DNA of 64,000 bases from an uncultured Pelagibacteraceae bacterium (GTDB lineage: Bacteria > Pseudomonadota > Alphaproteobacteria > Pelagibacterales > Pelagibacteraceae). The position numbers were made by a program, and so were the translations under genes. Below are positions 8,515 to 46,733 of the stretch, in pieces; positions within the stretch are counted from its first letter, which is position 1, and every line of letters starts with the position of its first letter. Where the stretch lies: the NCBI GenBank assembly GCA_902563555.1, contig CACEXM010000001.1:62001-126000 (forward strand). The letters are read 5' to 3'. The notes beneath the pieces are model-generated. The model saw only the letters and a list, made by a program, of their open reading frames with translations, did not search any database and had not been told where the DNA came from.

Positions 8515-10196
8515 AATAAACCCTCAATTTGCCCTTTTTGATTTAATTTAATAGTATCAGCGGCTGGCTTTCTTGGTAATCCTGGCATCGTCATTATTGA
8601 CCCACAAATGACTACCACAAATTCTGCTCCTGAAGATAATCTTACTTCTCTTATTGGTATTTCATGATTTGAGGGGGCTCCTTTGAGTTTGGGGTCAGTT
8701 GAAAAACTAAATTGAGTTTTTGCAATACAAACCGGTAAATTTCCATGACCATTATCCTCAAAAACTTTTAATTGTTCTTTAACTTTGTCGTCAGCTGTTA
8801 TTTTATTAGCTTTATAGATTTGTTTAGCAATTAACTCTATCTTATCCCAGAGTTTAAGATTGTTATTATATAAAAAATTAAATTTATTTTTGTTATTTTT
8901 GCAGACTTTAACAACTTTTTTGGCAAGATCTTTGGTCCCATTTCCACCCTTAGCCCAATGCTTACATTCACTGACTTCAACTTTTCTTTTTTTACAAAAA
9001 TTTATAACAGTTTTAACTTCTTTTTTTGTATCTAGCGCAAAATGATTTATTGCTATTATCGGTTCTAAACCAAATTTTTTTATATTTGTAATATGTCTTT
9101 CCAAGTTAACCAATCCTCTTTCTAAAGCCGATATATCCTCTTTTTTTAAGTCCTCTTTTTCAACTCCTCCATGCATTTTTAATGCTCTTATTGTTGCAAC
9201 AATTACTACACAGTTTGGGGTTAATCCTGCTTTCCTGCATTTAATATTTAAAAACTTTTCTGCACCAAGATCTGCACCAAATCCTGCTTCAGTAACCACA
9301 TAATCGGATAATTTTAAAGCAGTTTTTGTTGCAATCACTGAATTACATCCGTGAGCAATGTTTGCAAAAGGACCACCATGAATGATTGCTGGATTATTTT
9401 CTAAAGTTTGAGTTACATTAGGTCTAATTGCTTCCTTAAGTAAAACAGTCATGGGTCGATGAGCATTTATATCTCTAGCATAAAGTGGCTTTCCATTTTT
9501 GTTATATGCAAAAGTAATATTACCAATTCTTTTCTCTAAATCTTTTAAATCATTAGAAAGACAAAAAATAGCCATCACTTCTGATGCAACTGTTATGTCG
9601 AAACCATCAACTCTTTTGAAATCTTTAGCAACCCCACTCGTATTGATATCAATAAATCTAAGAGCGCGATCATTCATATCCATTACACGCTTCCAAACTA
9701 TTTTTTTTTCATCAATATTTAGTTTGTTCCCCCAATAAATATGATTATCTATCATTGCTGAAAGTAAATTATGCGCTGAAGTAATGGCATGGAAATCACC
9801 TGTAAAATGTAAATTTATTTGTTCCATAGGAACAACTTGGGCATAACCACCCCCTGCAGCACCACCCTTCATTCCAAAAGATGGACCTAAACTAGGTTCT
9901 CTCAAACAGACAATAGATTTTTTACCAATTTTATTTAAACCATCACTTAGACCAACTGAAGTTGTTGTTTTTCCCTCACCTGCTGGTGTTGGCGTTATTG
10001 CAGTAACTAAAATTAATTTACCATCCTTTTTTTTCTTCAGTTTATCTAAAAATTCAAAATTAATTTTTGCGATATGTCTACCCATTGGACTGAAAGCACT
10101 GCTCTTATCTGGAACTTTAATTTTTGCTAAAATTTTACCTATCGGTTTCATTTTAGCTTTTCTTGCTATTTCTATATCTGATTTTACTTTAGCCAT
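8511..10196 (-). CDS. fhs: Formate-tetrahydrofolate ligase
   Basis: 561 aa, close to the usual 555-560. It joins formate to tetrahydrofolate with ATP, giving 10-formyl-THF, and in one-carbon-oxidising bacteria can run in reverse to make ATP. Seen: P-loop [17 protein letters not shown] at about residues 67-83, [18 protein letters not shown] at 108-125, [10 protein letters not shown], the [19 protein letters not shown] block, and near the C-terminus [17 protein letters not shown], all signatures of the family. It fits the tetrahydrofolate-linked demethylases elsewhere in the window, supplying the formate end of the C1 pathway. It appears monocistronic. Confidence 0.95.
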
Positions 10197-26744: not shown

Positions 26745-27122
26745 TTAAGACAAATCTATAGCAAATTTTTTTAACGTTTCGATAGGTAAGATTTTCAGAG
26801 TATTTTCATGTGTGCTCTTTAGATAAATCGGGCAACCTTTACCAGCTTCGACGGCCCTTGCATACCATGTAGCACATACACACCATCCATCTCCATCCTT
26901 TAATCCGGGAAAACCATATTCAGGATGTGGTGTAATCAAATCATTACCAGCCTCTTTGCACCATACTAAAAATTCAGTTGTTACTTTTGCACAAACAGTA
27001 TGTAAACCCCTGTCATTTTCATCAGTGTTACAACAACCATCTCTGTACCATCCAGTGAGCGGATCCAATGAACAACTTTCCAAATTTTCACCTAAAACAT
27101 TTTTTTGCATTGATTTATCCAA
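26745..27122 (-). CDS. DUF2237-family protein
   Basis: 125 aa, soluble. Seen: KNVLGENLESCSLDPLTGWYRDGCCNT near the N-terminus, DRGLHTVCAKVTTEFLVWCKEAGNDLITP, and FPGLKDGDGWCVCATWYARAVEAGKGCPIYLKSTHENTL, the complete DUF2237 pattern with its conserved cysteines (at least seven Cys in all). Function of the family is not established to my knowledge. It overlaps the upstream 2OG oxygenase gene by 8 bases, making it the last gene of a hisI-oxygenase-oxygenase-DUF2237 run. The many conserved Cys suggest metal binding or disulfides. Confidence 0.82.
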   Translation of the reverse strand: MDKSMQKNVLGENLESCSLDPLTGWYRDGCCNTDENDRGLHTVCAKVTTEFLVWCKEAGNDLITPHPEYGFPGLKDGDGWCVCATWYARAVEAGKGCPIYLKSTHENTLKILPIETLKKFAIDLS

Positions 27123-27747
27123 ATATATTAAAAATTTTATTATCTATAAGCCCATTAAATGAAATGGAACGCCTTTCCTCTTTTGTTCCTTTAAAAGGAT
27201 AAACTGTATGCATCAAGTAGTGAGGAAAAAAATAGAAATCACCAACTTTTGGTTTTATAGGATATCTACATTGAGACAAAAACATTCTGTTACCATGAAT
27301 TAATTCCAAGTTTCCACCTCTATAGTCTGGTTTATTATCTTGATAGGGTTTACCAAAAGTTTCAGGTAATTTTAAAAATCCTGCACCAGATATATGACCA
27401 GAGTGCCAATGTATCGGGTTATATTCATTTTCAAATTGTCTTACCACCCACGACTCAATTAATCTAAATTCTGAAATTTTATTTCCAGTATCTTTATAAA
27501 TCCATTGAGCAACAGTATCACCTAAAAATTTAAGCCAACCACTTTCTTGGACAGTTTTTTTGTCTAATTTAAATTCTTGTTTTACGTCTCCCACAAGACC
27601 TTTACCAACATCTAATTTTTTCGACTCCTCTTCATCATTGATTGTAGCATCAATGAAATTATTTAGCTTAGATAAAAGTTCTTCTGGAATTCTAGCCTTG
27701 TAAATAGATGGACCAAAAGCTTTAATCAAACCATAATTATTTTCCAT
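27115..27747 (-). CDS. Putative 2OG-Fe(II) oxygenase, second tandem copy
   Basis: 210 aa, double-stranded beta-helix protein of the 2OG-FeII_Oxy_5 kind. Seen: VVRQFENEYNPIHWHSGHISGAGFLKLP with His113, His115 and His118, VGDFYFFPHYLMHTVYPF with the distal His, and ERRSISFNG carrying the expected 2OG-binding Arg. It is clearly a duplicate of the gene at 27756-28397. The HWHSGH cluster offers the first metal ligand; the acidic ligand of the HxD triad is not obvious, and this family uses H-x-H or variable positions. Known relatives act on proteins, nucleic acids or lipids and are common in marine phages. Substrate unknown. Confidence 0.7.
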   Translation of the reverse strand: MENNYGLIKAFGPSIYKARIPEELLSKLNNFIDATINDEEESKKLDVGKGLVGDVKQEFKLDKKTVQESGWLKFLGDTVAQWIYKDTGNKISEFRLIESWVVRQFENEYNPIHWHSGHISGAGFLKLPETFGKPYQDNKPDYRGGNLELIHGNRMFLSQCRYPIKPKVGDFYFFPHYLMHTVYPFKGTKEERRSISFNGLIDNKIFNIFG

Positions 27748-27755
27748 AATTTATA

Positions 27756-28397
27756 TCAGTAATTGCCGTAGGCGTCGTAAATATTATCATCAATTTTTGC
27801 ATTGAAGGATATTGATCTTCTTTCTTCGTCACTATCTGTAAATGGATATACTGTATGCATCATATAATTTGGAAAAAAATAAAAACTGCCAACTTCAGGA
27901 AGAACACTAAAGGTTGATCTTTGTAAAAACATTTTAGCACCATGAACTAATTCGATTTTCCCATTTTTGTAAGTTTTTTTTCCATCCTTTGATTCTTGTC
28001 CTAATATTTTAGGTACCTTTAAGTAACCAACTCCAGACACATGTCCAGAGTGCCAATGTATTGGGTTATAGTCATTTTCAAATTGTCTCACGACCCAGGT
28101 CTCATTAATTATAAATTTTGAGATTTTTTTTTTCTCAGTATTTAAAATCCAAGCACCGACTGCTTTAGCTAAAAAATTCATAAATCCTGATGTCTCTACA
28201 AATTTATTTTCTAAAACAAATTCTTGTTTTACATGCCCTGCTAATTTGTGACCCCAATCCTGTTTTTTTGATTTTTCATCATCAGCAATAATATCATCAA
28301 CGTATTTGTTTAGAGTTTTTATCAATTCATCAGGCATTTGTACTTTTGCAATACTTGGTCCAAAAGGTCTAGTTATTTGTATTTGGCTTTCAGGCAT
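27756..28397 (-). CDS. Putative 2OG-Fe(II) oxygenase, first tandem copy
   Basis: 213 aa, same architecture as its neighbour. Seen: VVRQFENDYNPIHWHSGHVSGVGYLKVP at about residues 102-129 (His114, His116, His119), VGSFYFFPNYMMHTVYPF with distal His181, then ERRSISFNA. The two copies share the core blocks almost word for word but differ in the first 60 residues, so the duplication is not recent. It begins 3 bases after hisI and probably is co-transcribed with it. Product and substrate are unknown; hydroxylation of a protein, lipid or free amino acid are all possible. Confidence 0.7.
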   Translation of the reverse strand: MPESQIQITRPFGPSIAKVQMPDELIKTLNKYVDDIIADDEKSKKQDWGHKLAGHVKQEFVLENKFVETSGFMNFLAKAVGAWILNTEKKKISKFIINETWVVRQFENDYNPIHWHSGHVSGVGYLKVPKILGQESKDGKKTYKNGKIELVHGAKMFLQRSTFSVLPEVGSFYFFPNYMMHTVYPFTDSDEERRSISFNAKIDDNIYDAYGNY

Positions 28398-41027: not shown

Positions 41028-41834
41028 GTGATTAAATTAAAATCTTCAGAATATAAAAAATACTCTAAATTTCTTAATAATTTAGCAAATAAACTTACTA
41101 GATTTTATTTCTTAAAATTAAACAAGCCCTTTAAAGTTTCAAATAAGTTAAAGGGCACAGGTTATGATCCTGTTACTAATGCAGATATAGCTTTTGAAAA
41201 ATTTATAAGAAAAGAGATTAGTAATAAATTTCCCACTCATCAAATTATAGGTGAGGAATTTAAAAATAAAAAAACCAAAAGTGATTTTTCCTGGGTTATA
41301 GACCCAATAGATGGCACACGATCTTTCGTTATAGGTAACCCAACCTGGAGTAACCTCATTTCGTTAAATTTCAAAGGAATACCAATTTTAGGTCTTGCTA
41401 ATTTTCCAATTTTAAAAAAATATTATTTTAACGAAACAGATAAAGTTGCTTTTGTGTGTGAAAATGGAAATAAAAAAAGATTAAAAGTAAATAAAAAAGT
41501 AACTTTCGCAAATATGAAATTGTCGGCTGCATTTCATGGTAGCTTATCTTTAAACCAACAAAAAAAAATACCACAAATATTAAAACGAATGCAATTTCCG
41601 TGTGCTGATGCTCTGAGTTATTCTCATTTTGCTGAAGGAAAAATAGATATTGTCATTCAATGTGGAAATAAAATTTGGGATATTCATGCTTTAATTCCTA
41701 TAATTAGAGCGGCCGAAGGAATAGTTACCACTTGGAAAAATGAGGATCCAAAAAAAGCAGGAAACATTATTTGTGCGCCGAACAAAAAACTTCATAAAAG
41801 AATAGTGAAAATATTAAAACCTGTGGCTAAGTAG
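41028..41834 (+). CDS. Inositol monophosphatase-family phosphatase, possibly histidinol-phosphatase
   Basis: 268 aa, GTG start at 41028. Seen: GYDPVTNADIAFEKFIRKEI (about 45-64), the metal ligands in IIGEEF (Glu pair), DPIDGTRSFVIGNPTWSNLISL, and IWDIHALIPIIRAAEGIVTTW with the last Asp ligand. All catalytic blocks intact. The G-x-R-SF-I-G-NP-W form resembles the HisN-type histidinol-phosphatases of actinobacteria and alphaproteobacteria, and hisI is elsewhere in this window. Inositol or 3'-phosphoadenosine phosphatase are alternatives. It overlaps the SMR gene convergently by 8 bases. Confidence 0.82.
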   Translation: MIKLKSSEYKKYSKFLNNLANKLTRFYFLKLNKPFKVSNKLKGTGYDPVTNADIAFEKFIRKEISNKFPTHQIIGEEFKNKKTKSDFSWVIDPIDGTRSFVIGNPTWSNLISLNFKGIPILGLANFPILKKYYFNETDKVAFVCENGNKKRLKVNKKVTFANMKLSAAFHGSLSLNQQKKIPQILKRMQFPCADALSYSHFAEGKIDIVIQCGNKIWDIHALIPIIRAAEGIVTTWKNEDPKKAGNIICAPNKKLHKRIVKILKPVAK

Positions 41835-42162
41835 CCTTGCCAAGTGTGTTGAGTAAAATTACACCAATAATAATTAATATTATTCCTATAATTCCATAGA
41901 GATTTGGGATTTGATTGTATTTAAACACGCCAAATAAAGTTACTGCAGTAATAGTTAATCCGCCATAAGTTGCATAAGTGAAACCAACTGGAATAATATT
42001 CATTGATTTAGATAAACAAAAAATACAAGCAACTATTGATATTACACAAAAAATTGTTGGGCCAATATTTGTAAATCCATTAGTTGATTTTAAAAAACCA
42101 TTCGAAGTTATGCCTAAGATAATTGCCAATAGAAGAAATATATATCCTGACAAATTACTCAT
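41827..42162 (-). CDS. Small multidrug resistance (SMR/EmrE)-family protein
   Basis: 111 aa, four hydrophobic segments. Seen: N-terminal LSGYIFLLLAIILGITSNGFLKSTNGFTN in the position of the membrane-embedded Glu helix, where EmrE has Glu14 and this protein appears to have Ile/Gly/Thr rather than the catalytic Glu. Then SVVACIFCLSKSMNIIPVGFTYATYGGLTITAVTLFG and ILIIIGVILLNTLGK. The GFTYATYGG-T motif is SMR-like. The missing catalytic Glu suggests a guanidine-, lipid- or other non-drug-exporting relative, so transport by proton exchange is doubtful. First of the minus-strand run with DUF2798. Confidence 0.7.
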   Translation of the reverse strand: MSNLSGYIFLLLAIILGITSNGFLKSTNGFTNIGPTIFCVISIVACIFCLSKSMNIIPVGFTYATYGGLTITAVTLFGVFKYNQIPNLYGIIGIILIIIGVILLNTLGKAT

Positions 42163-42176
42163 ATTCTAAAATATAA

Positions 42177-42401
42177 TTATTTAGTTATTTTATCTACAAA
42201 TTTTTTAATAGGTGGGCCAAGTATAAGAGCAGCTATGATTGCTATCGGTAAACTTATCATCCAAGCTTTTAGGAATCTGGTGATATAATCTTTATCCATA
42301 CCAGTATTAATATAAGTAATAATAAGGGTCATAAGCAAACTCATGCCAAAGCCCATAATTAAGATAAAGATAAGATCAAAGTATTTTTTTGAAAATATCA
42401 T
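42177..42401 (-). CDS. DUF2798-family membrane protein
   Basis: 74 aa, two hydrophobic segments (about 7-30 and 46-66). Seen: FDLIFILIMGFGMSLLMTLIITYINTGMDKDYITRFLKAWMISLPIAIIAALILGPPIKKFVDKI, with the conserved-type M-x-x-x-M-s-x-x-N/T-x-G- and W-x-x-x-x-x-x-A-x-P pattern of DUF2798. Function unknown. ATG overlaps the stop of the DsbA-like isomerase gene (ATGA at 42398-42401), so they are read together. Confidence 0.7.
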   Translation of the reverse strand: MIFSKKYFDLIFILIMGFGMSLLMTLIITYINTGMDKDYITRFLKAWMISLPIAIIAALILGPPIKKFVDKITK

Positions 42402-42982
42402 TTTTTAAAAAATTTAATTGCATCTTCCATCCTATCATCACCCCAAAATATTTCATTTTTAACAACAAAAGAGGGACTACCAAAGATTTTATTTTCTCTT
42501 GCAGAATTTGTGTTGGCTAAGTATTTATCTTCAATTAATTTTGTTTTTGCTTCAGATATTATCTCATCCTTATTGAGTTTTAATTCTTTACATACTTCAG
42601 AAATACTTGGCTCTATCGCTGGTTCTTTACCCTCTTGAAACCATTTCTTATACGTCAGTCTCACATAATCCACACCCCAACTTTTATCTAATCCAAGAAT
42701 TGCAACTTGATTTGCTAAATCAAATTCAGATAGTGGGTAGGGCACAGGAGTTTTAGCAAAAAAACCATAACCCTCAGCCCGTCTTTCAATATCTCTCCAC
42801 ATGTAATTTACTTTATTAAGCTTATCCTTTGGAAATGGAATATTATTCATTTCTTTCATAATTACCCGAACGCTAAAAGGTTTCCAATTAAAACTGACTT
42901 GATGATTTTTTTCAACATCAAGTATTCTAGTGACTGCTAAATAAGTATATGTGCTTCCAATTGAGAAATAAAAGTCAATCAT
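42398..42982 (-). CDS. 2-hydroxychromene-2-carboxylate isomerase / DsbA-like thioredoxin-fold protein
   Basis: 194 aa. Seen: N-terminal IDFYFSIGSTYTYLAVTRIL (where DsbA has F-x-x-x-x-C-P-w, here S-I-G-S-T-Y, as in the HCCA isomerase/GST-kappa group), NWKPFSVRVIMKEMNN, NYMWRDIERRAEGYGF, and the C-terminal SARENKIFGSPSFVVKNEIFWGDDRMEDAIKF. The G-x-P-x-F-V block is the cis-Pro strand. No catalytic Cys pair, so it is not an oxidoreductase but an isomerase or GST-like enzyme, probably glutathione-dependent. Substrate unknown; relatives act in aromatic degradation. Confidence 0.82.
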   Translation of the reverse strand: MIDFYFSIGSTYTYLAVTRILDVEKNHQVSFNWKPFSVRVIMKEMNNIPFPKDKLNKVNYMWRDIERRAEGYGFFAKTPVPYPLSEFDLANQVAILGLDKSWGVDYVRLTYKKWFQEGKEPAIEPSISEVCKELKLNKDEIISEAKTKLIEDKYLANTNSARENKIFGSPSFVVKNEIFWGDDRMEDAIKFFKK

Positions 42983-42988
42983 TTACTT

Positions 42989-43309
42989 TTATTTTGACAT
43001 AGGAGTAGCGCCAGTCTCCAAACTTATAATCTTTCCATCTTTGTATTTATAAACTGCCATTACTGCTTCAACATTCCCATCATTAAATGTAACAATTGAA
43101 TGGTGAACTCCAACTTCATCATTTTCATAGACTACTCTTGCTTTATCTTGGTTTATATCACCACTCATTGCCCATTTTATAACATCAGTTTTACCTATGG
43201 TATTTCCTGACTTATGCATTGTGAATTTAAAGTCATCATGCAAAAGTTCATTCATAATTGACTCATCTTTATTATTAATTGCATTCGTATATTTCTCTAA
43301 TATCGACAT
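42989..43309 (-). CDS. SnoaL/NTF2-like small protein
   Basis: 106 aa. Seen: SILEKYTNAINNKDESIMNELLHDDFKFTMHKSG and VKWAMSG--NQDKARVVYENDEVGVHHSIVTFNDGNVEAVMAVYKYKDGKIISLETGATPM, the helix-then-sheet cone of the NTF2/SnoaL fold. AAGGAG lies 8 bases before the ATG on the minus strand. Function unknown; such proteins are small cyclases, isomerases or ligand-binding proteins. It sits between the DUF1330 and DsbA-like genes, 1 and 6 bases away. Confidence 0.75.
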   Translation of the reverse strand: MSILEKYTNAINNKDESIMNELLHDDFKFTMHKSGNTIGKTDVIKWAMSGDINQDKARVVYENDEVGVHHSIVTFNDGNVEAVMAVYKYKDGKIISLETGATPMSK

Positions 43310-43310
43310 T

Positions 43311-43598
43311 TTAAACTCCTTTAATTATTATTCCATTACTGACTGAATTGTCTAAACGGATTTTTTTAATTGGTTTATACTCATCTGAACTATACCACTC
43401 TAAAGCTTTTTCGTAACTTGGAAATTTAATAATAATTGTTCTGGGATATGTCCAAACACCTTCAATTACTTTGGATTCACCACCTCTGACAATATATTCA
43501 CCTCCAAATTTTTTAGCTATTGGTGTTACCTTCTGAACGTATTCTTTATATTCTTCAGGTTTTTTTATTTCTATATTAAAAATAACAAAACCTGGCAT
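43311..43598 (-). CDS. DUF1330-family protein (dimeric alpha-beta barrel)
   Basis: 95 aa. Seen: PGFVIFNIEIKKPEEYKEYVQKVTPIAKKFGGEYIVRGGESKVIEGVWTYPRTIIIKFPSYEKALEWYSSDEYKPIKKIRLDNSVSNGIIIKGV, which contains the whole DUF1330 pattern (Y-x-x-x-x-x-p-x-x-x-x-G-G-x-x-x-r-G-g, F-P-s-x-x-x-A-x-x-W-Y-x-S-x-e-Y). Function unknown. Its ATG overlaps the stop (TAATG) of a 23-codon ORF lying before it, so translation is probably coupled to that leader. Confidence 0.85.
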   Translation of the reverse strand: MPGFVIFNIEIKKPEEYKEYVQKVTPIAKKFGGEYIVRGGESKVIEGVWTYPRTIIIKFPSYEKALEWYSSDEYKPIKKIRLDNSVSNGIIIKGV

Positions 43599-43669
43599 TA
43601 AAGATCATTTAAACCACATTCTATTAAACTTACAAACGATAGCTGACTTCTGACTTCCATTGCGATCAT
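43598..43669 (-). CDS. 23-residue ORF translationally coupled to the DUF1330 gene
   Basis: Seen: AAAGGAGTGATAATG on the minus strand gives a strong ribosome-binding site for ATG at 43669; the frame MIAMEVRSQLSFVSLIECGL then NDL ends at TAA, and TAATG is shared with the DUF1330 start. A leader or small regulatory peptide is likely because the DUF1330 gene has no Shine-Dalgarno site of its own, so its translation depends on this ORF. The peptide itself shows no motif. Not recognised. Confidence 0.5.
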   Translation of the reverse strand: MIAMEVRSQLSFVSLIECGLNDL

Positions 43670-43685
43670 TATCACTCCTTTGATG

Positions 43686-44102
43686 TTAAACGTAGATTTT
43701 ATCTGCTAACCCGTAACAAAGTAAAGCACTTAAAATTGTCAAAAATAAAGGTGCGTAAATTGCTTCATCAGAAGTTTTGTCGGTATGTCCAAGTTTATTT
43801 ATCTTAGTACTATAAAAACCAACTATAAATGCTGATAGGTTTTGTAAAAACACAAGATTAAAAAACCCCCAAGTAGCTTCTACACCATTTGGTCTTATAA
43901 ATCCTATGTAAATAGCCATCGCAGTCGAGCCAAAAAATATAGAACCAAAAAATCTAACAATACCTGCGCCCGTGTCATGCATTCCATATTGATTTAAAAA
44001 AGACTGCGTTTGAAACACACACCTAAATCCATAGTAAGCAAAACCTGCAAAGTGGATTATAAATAAAGTTAAATAGATTATTCCATTAAATTTTTCTAAC
44101 AT
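43686..44102 (-). CDS. Four-helix membrane protein of unknown function
   Basis: 138 aa, hydrophobic segments at about 8-28, 50-68, 76-96 and 116-134. Seen: NGIIYLTLFIIHFAGFAYYGFRCVFQTQSFLNQYGMHDTGAGIVRFFGSIFFGSTAMAIYIGF and NLVFLQNLSAFIVGFYSTKINKLGHT. No family recognised, though the layout resembles small DUF4345-type proteins. It sits in the run of small genes, with a moderate ribosome-binding site. The location suggests the membrane partner of the soluble neighbours. Confidence 0.6.
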   Translation of the reverse strand: MLEKFNGIIYLTLFIIHFAGFAYYGFRCVFQTQSFLNQYGMHDTGAGIVRFFGSIFFGSTAMAIYIGFIRPNGVEATWGFFNLVFLQNLSAFIVGFYSTKINKLGHTDKTSDEAIYAPLFLTILSALLCYGLADKIYV

Positions 44103-44115
44103 TGATTAAAATCCT

Positions 44116-44424
44116 TTAACTAAATATTGGTCTAATCTCATCTTCAATAGTACCTTCTATTGCAACTTCTTTTAATTGCTCTAAAAGTTTAATATATTCA
44201 GGATCTGCAGACATGTTAGCGTCAGCATCATTATTACCTTCAAACATGGGTCCAATTAAAGTCTCCCTTATGGTTCTTGGGTCTCCACCCATTTGAAAAG
44301 AAAAATAAACATCATGGTTAGGATAATGTTTTTTTCTAACTGCCGCTAAACCTTTTCCTATTTCCATTGCTTTTCCTAGGCCATCATCTTTTACCCTCAT
44401 CGTTCTAGTATAAATTACCTTCAT
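44116..44424 (-). CDS. Small barrel-like soluble protein of the ABM/NIPSNAP type
   Basis: 102 aa. Seen: MKVIYTRTMRVKDDGLGKAMEIGKGLAAVRKKHYPNHDVYFSFQMGGDPRTIRETLIGPMF, followed by MSADPEYIKLLEQLKEVAIEGTIEDEIRPIF. The strand-helix-strand-strand-helix order and the Y-x-r-x-x-x-x-x-x-x-x-G-x-x-A-x-x-r pattern suggest the ferredoxin-like ABM fold. GTGAGGAAAAACA supplies a ribosome-binding site. A short 11-codon ORF (44456-44421) just upstream overlaps its start by ATGA. Function not recognised. Confidence 0.55.
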   Translation of the reverse strand: MKVIYTRTMRVKDDGLGKAMEIGKGLAAVRKKHYPNHDVYFSFQMGGDPRTIRETLIGPMFEGNNDADANMSADPEYIKLLEQLKEVAIEGTIEDEIRPIFS

Positions 44425-44458
44425 TGTTTTTCCTCACTCGGTAAAAATTTAGGCATTT

Positions 44459-44749
44459 TTATTTAGCATTAAAATCTATAACATCATCTGTACACTCAAC
44501 AAATTTATGAGGTTCGAAGAAATCGTTCATAGACTCTAACTGTTTATTAATTGCATCTGGATCAGTACCTTTCCACCAACAATACATTGTTAGATTGTCT
44601 CCAGGTGTATTCCAGCTCATTTGGCACTTTGCACTATCACTTGTCATTGCTTTAGTCATATCTTCCATAGACATTGAACCAGTAACTTCTATCATTTTAG
44701 CTTTTGCTTCTTTTGACTTAAAAGTGTGTGTTACTATATAGTTTTTCAT
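44459..44749 (-). CDS. Small soluble protein, DUF4242/ABM-like
   Basis: 96 aa. Seen: MKNYIVTHTFKSKEAKAKMIEVTGSMSMEDMTKAM, QMSWNTPGDNLTMYCWWKGTDPDAINKQLESMNDFFEPHKFVECTDDVIDF. The N-terminal Y-IVTHTFKS strand and the M-Y-CWW-G strand with the following helix fit a ferredoxin-like barrel half, as in DUF4242-type proteins. AGAAAGGAAAAAAA gives a ribosome-binding site. No signal peptide. Function unknown; it may bind a small ligand or metal (Cys, His, Trp-rich face). Confidence 0.55.
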   Translation of the reverse strand: MKNYIVTHTFKSKEAKAKMIEVTGSMSMEDMTKAMTSDSAKCQMSWNTPGDNLTMYCWWKGTDPDAINKQLESMNDFFEPHKFVECTDDVIDFNAK

Positions 44750-44764
44750 TTTTTTCCTTTCTAT

Positions 44765-44971
44765 TTAACTTTTAAAAAGAGCAAGAGCTTCATTTAAAAA
44801 TTTTTCAGATTTAGCATGGTCACCATTATTATGGGCATCCATACCCTGATCTTTAAGTTCTTGAGCTTTTTTAATTTTTTCATCAATATTTTTAGCCAAC
44901 ATTGGACATGAACCTGCGTATGCAGAGCTAACAAATAAGACCAAACAAAGTGTTAATATTATTTTTTTCAT
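44765..44971 (-). CDS. Exported 68-residue helical protein
   Basis: Seen: signal peptide MKKIILTLCLVLFVSSAYAG (cleavage after AYA), then a mature chain of about 48 residues, KNIDEKIKKAQELKDQGMDAHNNGDHAKSEKFLNEALALFKS, with the N-D/G-x-H-x-x-x-x-x-x-L-x-x-A-x-x-L pattern of a single TPR-like helix pair. AAGGAGTATAA precedes the ATG, a strong site. No family recognised. Exported, so a periplasmic adaptor or ligand-binding helper is possible. Confidence 0.6.
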   Translation of the reverse strand: MKKIILTLCLVLFVSSAYAGSCPMLAKNIDEKIKKAQELKDQGMDAHNNGDHAKSEKFLNEALALFKS

Positions 44972-44980
44972 TTATACTCC

Positions 44981-45271
44981 TTATAAATTTACTTCAGATA
45001 GTTCATATAATTTAGCACTCTCTACACATTCTGCGTAAATAGCTTTCGCGGTAGAATTATTCCCAGTTACAAATTCTTTCATTCCAGCTTCATTATGAAC
45101 ATTCACTTTAAATAACATTCCACTTTTATCTGGTATCATAGCGCCAACAGTTTTTTCTGGATAGGCAACACTTTTTCTAACACCCATTCCTTCATCTGAT
45201 TGCATCCAACCCATGAAAGTTTCTAATTTACCTTCTTTAAGTTTAAGATGAACTAACATTTCTTTTTCCAT
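44981..45271 (-). CDS. Small soluble protein, ABM-like
   Basis: 96 aa. Seen: EKEMLVHLKLKEGKLETFMGWMQSDEGMGVRKSVAYPEKTVGAMIPDKSGMLFKVNVHNEAGMKEFVTGNNSTAKAIYAECVESAKLYELSEV. A strand-helix-strand-strand-helix-strand order fits the ferredoxin-like barrel. AAAGGAGAAAAAAA sits before the ATG. Function unknown. This is one of at least three such folds in the run, which argues for a common role in handling a small hydrophobic or reactive compound. Confidence 0.55.
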   Translation of the reverse strand: MEKEMLVHLKLKEGKLETFMGWMQSDEGMGVRKSVAYPEKTVGAMIPDKSGMLFKVNVHNEAGMKEFVTGNNSTAKAIYAECVESAKLYELSEVNL

Positions 45272-45292
45272 TTTTTTCTCCTTTTTTTTGAA

Positions 45293-45664
45293 TTAATACA
45301 AAGTTTGAACTACTTTTTTAACTCTTTCAGCTCCATTAGGAACTAAAGCTTCAACAAATGTATGACATTTTTCAGTTTTAGCTTTGTCGTATTTTGAACC
45401 GTAATGTTTATCTACAGCTTTGTTTACTCCAGCATCCCAATCTTTTTCTGGAATACCTATTTCAAGAGCATATGTTTTTAAAACTTTTACAGTTGAAATA
45501 GATTTTTCTTTCATGCCGTATTCAAATTTTTCACCTGATGGCAGGAAATAGTTGGCCATATAAATTCCAACACAATCCCAAGCTTTAGATTTATCTTCAT
45601 TACTCATATCTGCATAAGCAGAAGTAAAAGCAAAAAAAGACAAGATTAAAATTATTTTCTTCAT
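45293..45664 (-). CDS. Exported protein of unknown function, first gene of the small-protein run
   Basis: 123 aa. Seen: signal peptide MKKIILILSFFAFTSAYA (cleavage before DMS), and a mature domain AWDCVGIYMANYFLPSGEKFEYGM, AGVNKAVDKHYGSKYDKAKTEKCHTFVEALVPNG with two Cys (in DCVG and EKCHT) that could form a disulfide. GAGGTTCT precedes the ATG. No family recognised. It starts just after a terminator/palindrome that ends cysEK, so the promoter of the run must lie within about 60 bases upstream. Confidence 0.6.
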   Translation of the reverse strand: MKKIILILSFFAFTSAYADMSNEDKSKAWDCVGIYMANYFLPSGEKFEYGMKEKSISTVKVLKTYALEIGIPEKDWDAGVNKAVDKHYGSKYDKAKTEKCHTFVEALVPNGAERVKKVVQTLY

Positions 45665-45696
45665 AGAACCTCAAATTTAATTATTTTAATTTAAAA

Positions 45697-45716
45697 ATGT
45701 AACTGTTTTGTTACAT
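45697..45716 (-). terminator. Palindrome between cysK and the small-protein run: terminator and possible operator
   Basis: Seen: ATGTAAC (45697-45703) and GTTACAT (45710-45716), loop of 6, followed on the minus strand by five T. That is a plausible intrinsic terminator for cysEK. The inner symmetry TGTAAC-N6-GTTACA also fits a TGT-N12-ACA two-fold site of the kind bound by PpsR/CrtJ-type or other dimeric regulators, and it lies just upstream of the first gene of the small-protein run. Both roles can hold together. Confidence 0.5.
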
Positions 45717-45731
45717 GCCTGATATGCGATA

Positions 45732-46733
45732 TTATAACCAGCTAGGTACAGGTAAGTTTTTTTCCTTTAAAAATGATTTATTAAACATCTTAGAGTTGTA
45801 TTTATCTGATTTATCACAAAGAATAGTTACGATTGTTTTTCCTGGCCCAAGTTCTTTTCCAAGTCTAATTGCACCAGCGATATTTATTCCACAACTTGTT
45901 CCTAAACTTAGACCTTCATTTTGAATTAGGTCATAAAGTATGGGCAATGCTTCGTGATCGTCAATGGAATATGCATCATCAATTTTTGCGTTCTCAAAAT
46001 TTTTTGTTATTCTACTTGAGCCAATCCCTTCAGTAATTGATCCACCTTCAGATTTTAATTTACCGTTTTTAATATAATTGTAAAGTGCTGATCCTTTAGG
46101 ATCGGAAAGATAAATTTTAACATTTTTATTCTTTTCTTTTAAAGCATTACTTACACCAGAAATTGTACCACCTGTTCCAGATGAACAAACAAAACCATCA
46201 ACTTTACCTTCAGTTTGTTCCCAAATTTCCTTTCCTGTTCCTTCATAATGTCCTTTAGCATTAGCAACATTATCGAATTGATTGGCCCAGACAACACCAT
46301 TATTATTAGTTGGTCTTAACTCATCTGCTAGACGTCCAGCAATCTTAACAAAATTATTTTCGTCTTTATATGGCTTTGCAGGTACTAATCTTAATTCTGC
46401 CCCTAGATTTTTTATTGTATCTTTTTTTTCTTGAGTTTGATTATCATTCATTACAATTATTGTTTTATAACCAAGTGAATTCCCTATCAAACCTAATCCA
46501 ATTCCGGTATTACCCGCAGTACCTTCAACAACAATACCACCTTTAGAAATTAATTTTTTTTCTTGTGCGTCTTTAAGTAATGAGAGCGCAGCTCTATCTT
46601 TGACAGACCCGCCAGGATTCATAAATTCTGCTTTACCATAAATGTTACATCCTGTTAATTCAGAGGCAGCTTTAAGTTTGATTAATGGAGTATTACCAAT
46701 TGAATCAATAAATGTATTTCTAATATGAACCAT
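45732..46733 (-). CDS. cysK: Cysteine synthase (O-acetylserine sulfhydrylase)
   Basis: 333 aa. It joins O-acetylserine and sulfide to give cysteine with PLP. Seen: IGNTPLIKLKAASELTGCNIYGKAEFMNPGGSVKDRAALSLL with the Schiff-base Lys45 in GGSVKDR, the loop VEGTAGNTGIGLGLI (residues 69-83), GTGGTISGVSNALKEKNK, and LIQNEGLSLGTSCGINIAGAI binding the phosphate. EGTAGNTG replaces the usual T-SGNTG of CysK, the form seen in the CysK/CBS-like branch of alphaproteobacteria, so cystathionine beta-synthase activity is an alternative. Overlaps cysE by one base in one operon. Confidence 0.9.
   Translation of the reverse strand: MVHIRNTFIDSIGNTPLIKLKAASELTGCNIYGKAEFMNPGGSVKDRAALSLLKDAQEKKLISKGGIVVEGTAGNTGIGLGLIGNSLGYKTIIVMNDNQTQEKKDTIKNLGAELRLVPAKPYKDENNFVKIAGRLADELRPTNNNGVVWANQFDNVANAKGHYEGTGKEIWEQTEGKVDGFVCSSGTGGTISGVSNALKEKNKNVKIYLSDPKGSALYNYIKNGKLKSEGGSITEGIGSSRITKNFENAKIDDAYSIDDHEALPILYDLIQNEGLSLGTSCGINIAGAIRLGKELGPGKTIVTILCDKSDKYNSKMFNKSFLKEKNLPVPSWL

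What the first reader, a model, noticed from the sequence alone, without database searches (positions are those of the whole stretch)
42989..45664. Operon of seven or so small proteins with unusual ribosome-binding sites and repeated barrel folds
Seen: the run SnoaL-like, DUF1330, four-helix membrane protein, three ABM/DUF4242-like proteins and two exported proteins, all minus-strand, nearly every one preceded by a good Shine-Dalgarno site (AAGGAG type), which is rare elsewhere in this window. At least three have the ferredoxin-like half-barrel pattern of oxidation- or ligand-handling proteins. The parts make a coherent but unrecognised set: exported, membrane and soluble members. This is the best candidate here for an undescribed system.
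Basis: partly seen in the sequence, partly recalled or inferred. Interest (0 to 1): 0.72.

Follow-up and report, generated by a model that had tools for sequence, protein, structure and literature searches.

The report
Mix-and-match small-gene operon in SAR11
In SAR11 ocean bacteria, a run of small genes of mostly unknown function appears to form an operon in which individual genes come and go between strains while keeping a nearly fixed order; what it does is not yet known.

Summary
Eight closely spaced minus-strand genes (42989-45664) carry strong Shine-Dalgarno sites: 6 of 8 against 5 of 66 other window genes. Only DUF1330 and SnoaL_2 pass a Pfam cut-off; six of eight do not.

In 68 SAR11 loci, the slot behind cysK holds varying subsets of these families. 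Order is kept (1011 of 1042 pairs), but 60 complete slots show 48 gene contents. Alleles are swapped between lineages. Parts of the set occur at other sites: in another SAR11 genus, and in a separate order where B981, B116 and SnoaL keep their order. A two-block leader (GCATANCWG ... TGTAACA) precedes the first gene in 38 of 65 slots, with six different first families.

I read it as a modular accessory operon of self-contained genes. Function is inferred only: handling of small reactive molecules. The mixing argues against one obligatory machine. Novelty: a new variant of the flexible genomic island, with undescribed families.

The parts
45665..45734 (-). Leader between cysK and the first gene of the set: block 1 GCATATCAG at 45719-45727, palindrome/block 2 ATGTAACAAAACAGTTACAT at 45697-45716, then a T-run
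   Evidence: Two-block element in 38 of 65 slot leaders.
45293..45664 (-). EXP: 123-aa protein with signal-like N-terminus; C31 near-invariant, C100 invariant; no Pfam family over cut-off
   Evidence: family in 78 of 197 genomes of the order
44981..45271 (-). B981: 96-aa protein, no Pfam family
   Evidence: also in 52 of 162 genomes of the order of G371
44765..44971 (-). TPR: 68-aa protein with signal-like N-terminus, weak TPR_2 match (16.3 bits, cut-off 27)
   Evidence: 15 of 60 complete slots
44459..44749 (-). B459: 96-aa protein, weakly SCO4226-like; H8, C42, C57 invariant in 10 aligned sequences
44116..44424 (-). B116: 102-aa protein, no Pfam family; allele type linked to that of B459
43686..44102 (-). 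MEM: 138-aa membrane protein by eye; weak DUF1361 hits in 7 of 20 members, one SLAC1 hit
43598..43669 (-). 23-codon reading frame with AAAGGAG site, stop overlapping the DUF1330 start (possible translational coupling; may be chance)
   Evidence: Sequence
43311..43598 (-). DUF1330 protein, 95 aa
   Evidence: Pfam 106.3 bits
42989..43309 (-). SnoaL-like protein, 106 aa; in 52 of 60 complete slots, including 38 of 38 with B981 and 32 of 32 with B116
41827..42982 (-). Downstream tail of the slot (DSBA-family protein, DUF2798 protein, small membrane protein I labelled SMR): also variable, but without Shine-Dalgarno sites of 5 nt here, so probably not part of the SD set

Best explanation
The stretch is a modular accessory operon. 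Shown: eight small genes on one strand with small gaps, whose families mostly carry strong Shine-Dalgarno sites that are rare in this window; between strains single genes are gained, lost and swapped while order is kept; in a majority of slots one leader element stands before the first gene. Inferred: they are read as one message; each gene is a self-contained translation unit ('cassette'), and homologous recombination between collinear slots trades cassettes. Inferred, weaker (about 0.3): the products are independent small-molecule binding proteins or enzymes (DUF1330, SnoaL/NTF2-like; in other slots cupin, GYD and a second SnoaL family) with exported and membrane helpers, which modify or remove reactive small metabolites; a strain's mix fits its water. 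B459 with B116, and B981 with SnoaL, are the likeliest working pairs.
For: Order: 1011 of 1042 ordered pairs over 68 loci (ten families, DsbA and DUF2798 included); 378 of 402 for the eight families in 49 slots whose cysK differs by 5% or more. Mixing: 48 contents in 60 complete slots, 15 families counted. Swaps: against the window, L021/L022 have cysE and cysK synonymous differences of 0.02-0.05, but B459, B116, MEM, DUF1330 and DUF2798 at 49-74% aa identity; in L031/L039 B459 is 95% at 0.26-0.27 while cysK is at 0.61-0.62. Correlation with cysE+cysK distance: impP 0.68, TauD-like 0.67; B981 0.08, MEM 0.17, B116 0.21, SnoaL 0.22, DUF1330 0.28, DUF2798 0.32. Other sites: genus g4; G371 and 11 of 11 fetched loci of its family f31 have B981 followed by SnoaL, with cup12 in 6 and B116 in 3. 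Leader: two-block element in 30 of 48 and 8 of 17 slot leaders, first gene EXP 28, B981 3, exp15 2, B116 2, Sno17 2, c43 1; block 1 before EXP in 7 of 7 g4 loci. Selection: high aa identity at large synonymous distance. Strong SD sites before most, not all, of these genes at the other loci.
Against: The two-block leader is missing from 27 of 65 slot leaders, 22 of them without even block 1 by my pattern, and from 11 of 11 f31 and 9 of 9 f141 leaders. EXP (0.56), TPR (0.54), B459 (0.60) and DsbA (0.61) follow cysE/cysK nearly as well as the flanks do. DUF1330 is not fixed in order (MEM before it 13, after it 7), and cup12 lies behind B116 in 9 of 9 slots but before it in G371 and f31. B981 has no SnoaL beside it in three g4 loci (L193, L196, L199) and in 9 of 9 f141 loci. 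Codon use gives no sign of high expression (C-ending 0.198 vs 0.193). No transcript was seen. The chemical function rests on family resemblance, and six of eight proteins pass no Pfam cut-off.
Confidence: 0.55

Rival explanations
1. One multi-protein machine with exported, membrane and soluble subunits.
For: Kept order; B459 and B116 co-occur (28 slots with both, 11 with one, 21 with neither; Fisher p = 1e-6, not corrected for relatedness) and their allele types match in 28 of 29 slots, against B459-MEM 22 of 29, B116-MEM 19 of 29, B981-B116 17 of 25, B981-MEM 21 of 34, B981-B459 14 of 26.
Against: 48 gene contents in 60 slots; 5 of 60 slots hold only two genes of the 16 families counted.
Confidence: 0.17
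2. A passive hot spot: small genes pile up between cysK and impP because insertion there is harmless.
For: Very variable content; slot length 1773-9223 bases; islands of hypothetical genes are known in SAR11 (PMC7318151, passages); the leader is not universal.
Against: Order, signs of purifying selection, and the same genes together at unrelated sites in g4 and family f31.
Confidence: 0.14
3. A tail of the cysE-cysK operon serving sulfur or cysteine metabolism, transcribed by read-through.
For: Next to a full cysK in 67 of 68 loci (chosen partly by cysK); the group A leader has a hairpin with a T-run that could be an attenuator.
Against: In 17 of 60 complete slots an inverted MEM gene lies between cysK and the first plus-strand gene; g4, G371 and f31 sites have no cysK beside the set in the stretches listed. 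PMC5069961 (passages): cysK and cysE were not upregulated under sulfur limitation in HTCC1062.
Confidence: 0.1
4. A defence or phage-derived island.
For: High turnover, unknown small genes.
Against: 0 of 10 proteins match PADLOC at E 0.01; PHROGs give two hits at E 0.005-0.008, both of unknown function; no relative of B459, MEM or EXP confirmed in viral contigs (the other families were not scanned there).
Confidence: 0.03

Closest known systems
Flexible genomic islands, additive and replacement (PMC4033161, passages)
   Same: Same place in different strains, different gene content, exchange by homologous recombination.
   Different: The unit of exchange here looks like a single small gene or a pair; order is kept; products are small and mostly unknown rather than O-chain or flagellar clusters.
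SAR11 hypervariable regions HVR1-4 (PMC2217521, passages)
   Same: Variable stretch in an otherwise conserved gene order.
   Different: Shorter (median 3.9 kb); the words cysK and cysteine do not occur in that paper's main text; HVR2 concerns cell-surface genes.
Integron gene cassette arrays (recalled)
   Same: Small self-contained genes read from one upstream promoter.
   Different: No repeat with three or more copies in the stretch; order is conserved.
ArqI-GloA2 operon of Pseudomonas aeruginosa (PMC12274486, abstract and passages)
   Same: Small ABM-domain protein in an operon with a glyoxalase, answering a reactive aldehyde.
   Different: No sequence relation shown; only a model for what such an operon can do.

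Membership tests
Flexible genomic island | Same chromosomal place, different content in different strains | tested here: met
   60 complete cysK-impP slots, 48 gene contents
Flexible genomic island | Exchange by homologous recombination | tested here: inconclusive
   Mosaic identities and low correlation with flanks for most families fit it; no gene trees or breakpoint tests were made
Additive fGI | Integrases or transposases at the edges | tested here: inconclusive
   None recognised by eye among recurrent slot families; the 47 singletons were not scanned against Pfam
Integron cassette array | Recombination-site repeats between cassettes | tested here: not met
   14 direct-repeat families in 42960-45740, each of two copies, none with three or more
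DUF1330 (PF07045) | Score over Pfam cut-off | tested here: met
   43311: 106.3 bits vs 23
SnoaL_2 (PF12680) | Score over Pfam cut-off | tested here: met
   42989: 30.5 bits vs 27
SCO4226-like (PF14026) | Score over Pfam cut-off | tested here: not met
   44459: 13.7 bits vs 28.5; weak hit in 10 of 10 members, best E 0.0023
ABM (PF03992) | Family match of 44981 and 44116 | tested here: not met
   No ABM hit among 17 and 7 members at E up to 10
Dimeric alpha-beta barrel | Ferredoxin-like fold of 44981, 44459, 44116 | not testable with these tools
Anti-phage defence system | Match to a PADLOC model | tested here: not met
   0 of 10 proteins

The most novel reading that the evidence does not exclude
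SAR11 and neighbouring streamlined marine Alphaproteobacteria share a cassette operon without a known integrase: single genes that bring their own ribosome-binding site are slotted, in an almost fixed order, behind a common leader, giving each strain its own kit of small proteins against reactive metabolites; 44459 and 44116 act as one pair and 44981 with the SnoaL-like protein as another.
Probability: 0.27. Interest if true: 0.82.

Novelty: new variant of a known kind. Interest (0 to 1): 0.6.

Why it matters
SAR11 is among the most abundant organisms on Earth and its genome is heavily streamlined (general knowledge). An apparent operon of about six or seven small, mostly unknown genes that stays under selection, is reshuffled between strains and shares members with a separate order points to a trait that may vary with habitat. 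The order rule makes it testable: gene content can be correlated with ocean conditions, and the leader, where present, may name further genes of the same regulon.

Tried and rejected
Spurious ORFs: rejected, because aa identity stays high at large synonymous distance. Strong SD as a mark of high expression: not supported; in the own-genome stretch around ribosomal, tuf, rpoBC and fusA genes (named by eye) 2 of 11 have a core of 5 nt or more, and codon use of the slot is average. A known RNA element: none in Rfam at E 0.5. Solved relatives: no convincing PDB hit for five alignments (best: B116 to FICD over 52 positions, E 0.0099; B981 0.48; EXP 0.11; none for B459 and MEM). Profile comparison among 13 slot families: mostly nothing; B981-DUF1330 58.9% over 31 columns, DUF1330-c18 23% over 64, and exported families matching, largely at their N-termini. 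Weak Pfam hits not used: DUF1361 in 7 of 20 MEM members and SLAC1 in one, DUF6588 and RTE1 in 6 of 15 EXP members each. Plasmid relatives: none for 44981, 43686 and the L171 B459 relative; 16 plasmid records for the cupin of L171. cysK terminator as the whole explanation of the leader: not favoured, because 8 of 17 leaders behind an inverted MEM have the two blocks. In group A the palindrome may still be a terminator: of 18 distinct 20-mers from 72 leaders, pair 5 is kept in 18, pair 6 in 16, pair 7 in 17, while pairs 2-4 were largely fixed by how I picked them; RNA fold z is only -1.4, 13 of 200 shuffles fold as well. Literature: no description found; only the held open-access library was searched. 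Recalled, from no call: HIMB59 as likely identity of G371 (1,410,127 bases) and HTCC7211 for G035 (1,456,888 bases); one search was meant to check the first and showed no exact length.
Full report
What is there. The window lies in a draft genome of 0.93 Mb, 78% complete; the nearest named records are Pelagibacteraceae. Between cysK (45732-46733) and an inositol-monophosphatase-like gene I call impP (41028-41834) lie eight small genes on the minus strand, then a DSBA-family gene, a DUF2798 gene and a small membrane-protein gene I labelled SMR. I call the eight families EXP (45293), B981 (44981), TPR (44765), B459 (44459), B116 (44116), MEM (43686), DUF1330 (43311) and SnoaL (42989). Six of eight have a Shine-Dalgarno core of 5 nt or more against 5 of 66 other genes (starts as called, gene list chosen by hand). 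The three genes downstream have none. By family the same contrast holds across slots, strongly for B981, B459, SnoaL and TPR, partly for MEM, weakly for B116, EXP and DUF1330; cupin (cup12), second SnoaL (Sno17), exp15 and c18 families of other slots are strong too.

The neighbourhood in other genomes. B116 was found in 9 of 147 genomes of the family. cysK was found in 147 of 201 genomes of the genus; I fetched 60 of those 147 slots, chosen for spread and contig length, and seven more from the B116 hits, which are biased towards B116. With the window this gives 68 loci, 60 of them reaching impP. 67 of 68 have full cysE and cysK; L018 has only a piece of cysK. Families come and go. Ordered pairs agree with the window in 1011 of 1042 cases. 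Thinned to 49 slots that differ by at least 5% in cysK, 378 of 402 pairs agree and 44 of 49 ordered contents are distinct. In 17 of 60 complete slots MEM is inverted and sits directly behind cysK. MEM-DUF1330 order is not fixed (13 to 7).

Exchange. Between the window and L021/L022 the flanks are nearly identical (cysK synonymous difference 0.05 and 0.02); EXP, B981 and TPR are at 0.20-0.31; B459, B116, MEM, DUF1330 and DUF2798 are at 49-74% aa identity and 0.58-0.67; SnoaL is at 89-90%. The other way round, B459 of L031 and L039 is 95% identical at 0.26-0.27 while cysK is at 0.61-0.62. Distances of B981, MEM, B116 and SnoaL hardly follow those of cysE+cysK (Spearman 0.08-0.22), DUF1330 and DUF2798 little (0.28, 0.32), while TPR, EXP, B459 and DsbA (0.54-0.61) come close to the flanking impP and TauD-like genes (0.68, 0.67). 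With thresholds of my own, allele types of B459 and B116 match in 28 of 29 slots; of B459-MEM in 22 of 29, B116-MEM 19 of 29, B981-MEM 21 of 34, B981-B116 17 of 25, B981-B459 14 of 26. Relatedness was not corrected for.

Other sites. In genus g4, seven loci at another place carry EXP, then from none to several of DUF1330, B981, B459, c18 and MEM (MEM in 6 of 7), then a 97-aa gene (the L193 copy weakly ABM-like, E 0.0085) and one or two GYD-like genes; best identities to slot copies reach 96%. There DUF1330 stands before B981. An eighth locus (L195, genus g2) has only EXP. In G371, which shares only the class with the window, B981-cup12-B116-SnoaL form a compact cluster (L204). B981 was found in 52 of 162 genomes of that order. 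I fetched 20 of those 52 loci: in family f31, 11 of 11 have B981 followed by SnoaL, 6 with cup12 and 3 with B116; in family f141, 3 of 9 have MEM beside B981 and none has SnoaL. B981, B116 and SnoaL keep the SAR11 order there; cup12 does not. L171, from another family of the class, has a cup12 relative, a ChrR-type cupin, a GYD gene and a B459 relative in one run. In sampled genomes of the class and phylum, own genome included, MEM was in 4 of 240 and 1 of 299, B459 in 3 of 240, B116 in 2 of 230, B981 in 2 of 230.

The leader. Behind cysK lies GCATATCAGGC, then the palindrome ATGTAACAAAACAGTTACAT and a T-run. In other slots such leaders stand before EXP, B981 and other first genes; behind an inverted MEM the two blocks are about 45 nt apart without a palindrome. 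A two-block pattern, written after seeing these leaders, fits 30 of 48 leaders behind cysK and 8 of 17 behind an inverted MEM; 5 more have block 1 only and 22 neither. Among all fetched loci from L012 on plus the window it hits 125 times: 124 outside genes longer than 100 aa and 1 inside; in every distinct case printed the next gene, 36-163 nt on, looks like a slot family, except an unclassified 162-aa gene in L176. Many of these loci overlap or are close relatives, so these are far fewer than 125 independent cases. In g4, block 1 stands before EXP in 7 of 7 loci without a clear block 2. f31 and f141 leaders do not fit (0 of 11, 0 of 9). Whether the leader is a promoter, an operator or, in group A, a terminator is open.

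Meaning. Order, strand, spacing and recurrence of the same genes together at unrelated sites say operon; the leader adds to this where it is present. The mixing says that no part is needed by all others. B981 never lacks SnoaL in the 60 slots (38 of 38), nor does B116 (32 of 32), but three g4 loci and 9 of 9 f141 loci show B981 without it nearby. I therefore favour independent small proteins with a common theme, perhaps with one or two working pairs, over a single machine. The theme, small reactive or aromatic molecules, is inferred from DUF1330, SnoaL, cupin and GYD relatives, from the ArqI-GloA2 precedent (PMC12274486, abstract and passages), and from an MsrA gene behind B981-MEM in L157. 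It is the weakest step.

Limits. No structure prediction was possible, so the fold part of the finding is neither confirmed nor refuted. No expression data were found. The library of papers holds open-access papers only.

Noticed in passing
L157 5600-8001: A second SAR11 site: a permease-like gene (by eye), B981, MEM and a peptide methionine sulfoxide reductase (PMSR) in a row.
   Followed up: partly
L171 73-2498: Run of DUF6854 (two stretches), cupin, a 111-aa gene without family (NTF2-like by eye), ChrR-type cupin, GYD and a B459 relative in an alphaproteobacterium outside the window's family.
   Followed up: partly
window 43598-43669: Possible 23-aa reading frame with strong Shine-Dalgarno site overlapping the DUF1330 start.
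   Followed up: partly
L105 2664-4119: A peroxiredoxin-like and a metallo-hydrolase-like gene (both by eye) lie left of cysE in place of VOC and MsrB.
   Followed up: no
window 27115-28397: Two adjacent similar-looking genes (210 and 213 aa) that may be tandem paralogues.
   Followed up: no
L020 around 9929-10183: A second, divergent DUF1330 gene elsewhere in the same genome (34% identical over 86 aa).
   Followed up: no
L156, L158, L159: MEM without other members of the set at a different SAR11 site, behind a glycosyltransferase-like gene (by eye).
   Followed up: no
L019 371-1170: In genus g14 a broken B116 end is followed by B981 (45%) and EXP (69%) at a contig edge.
   Followed up: no
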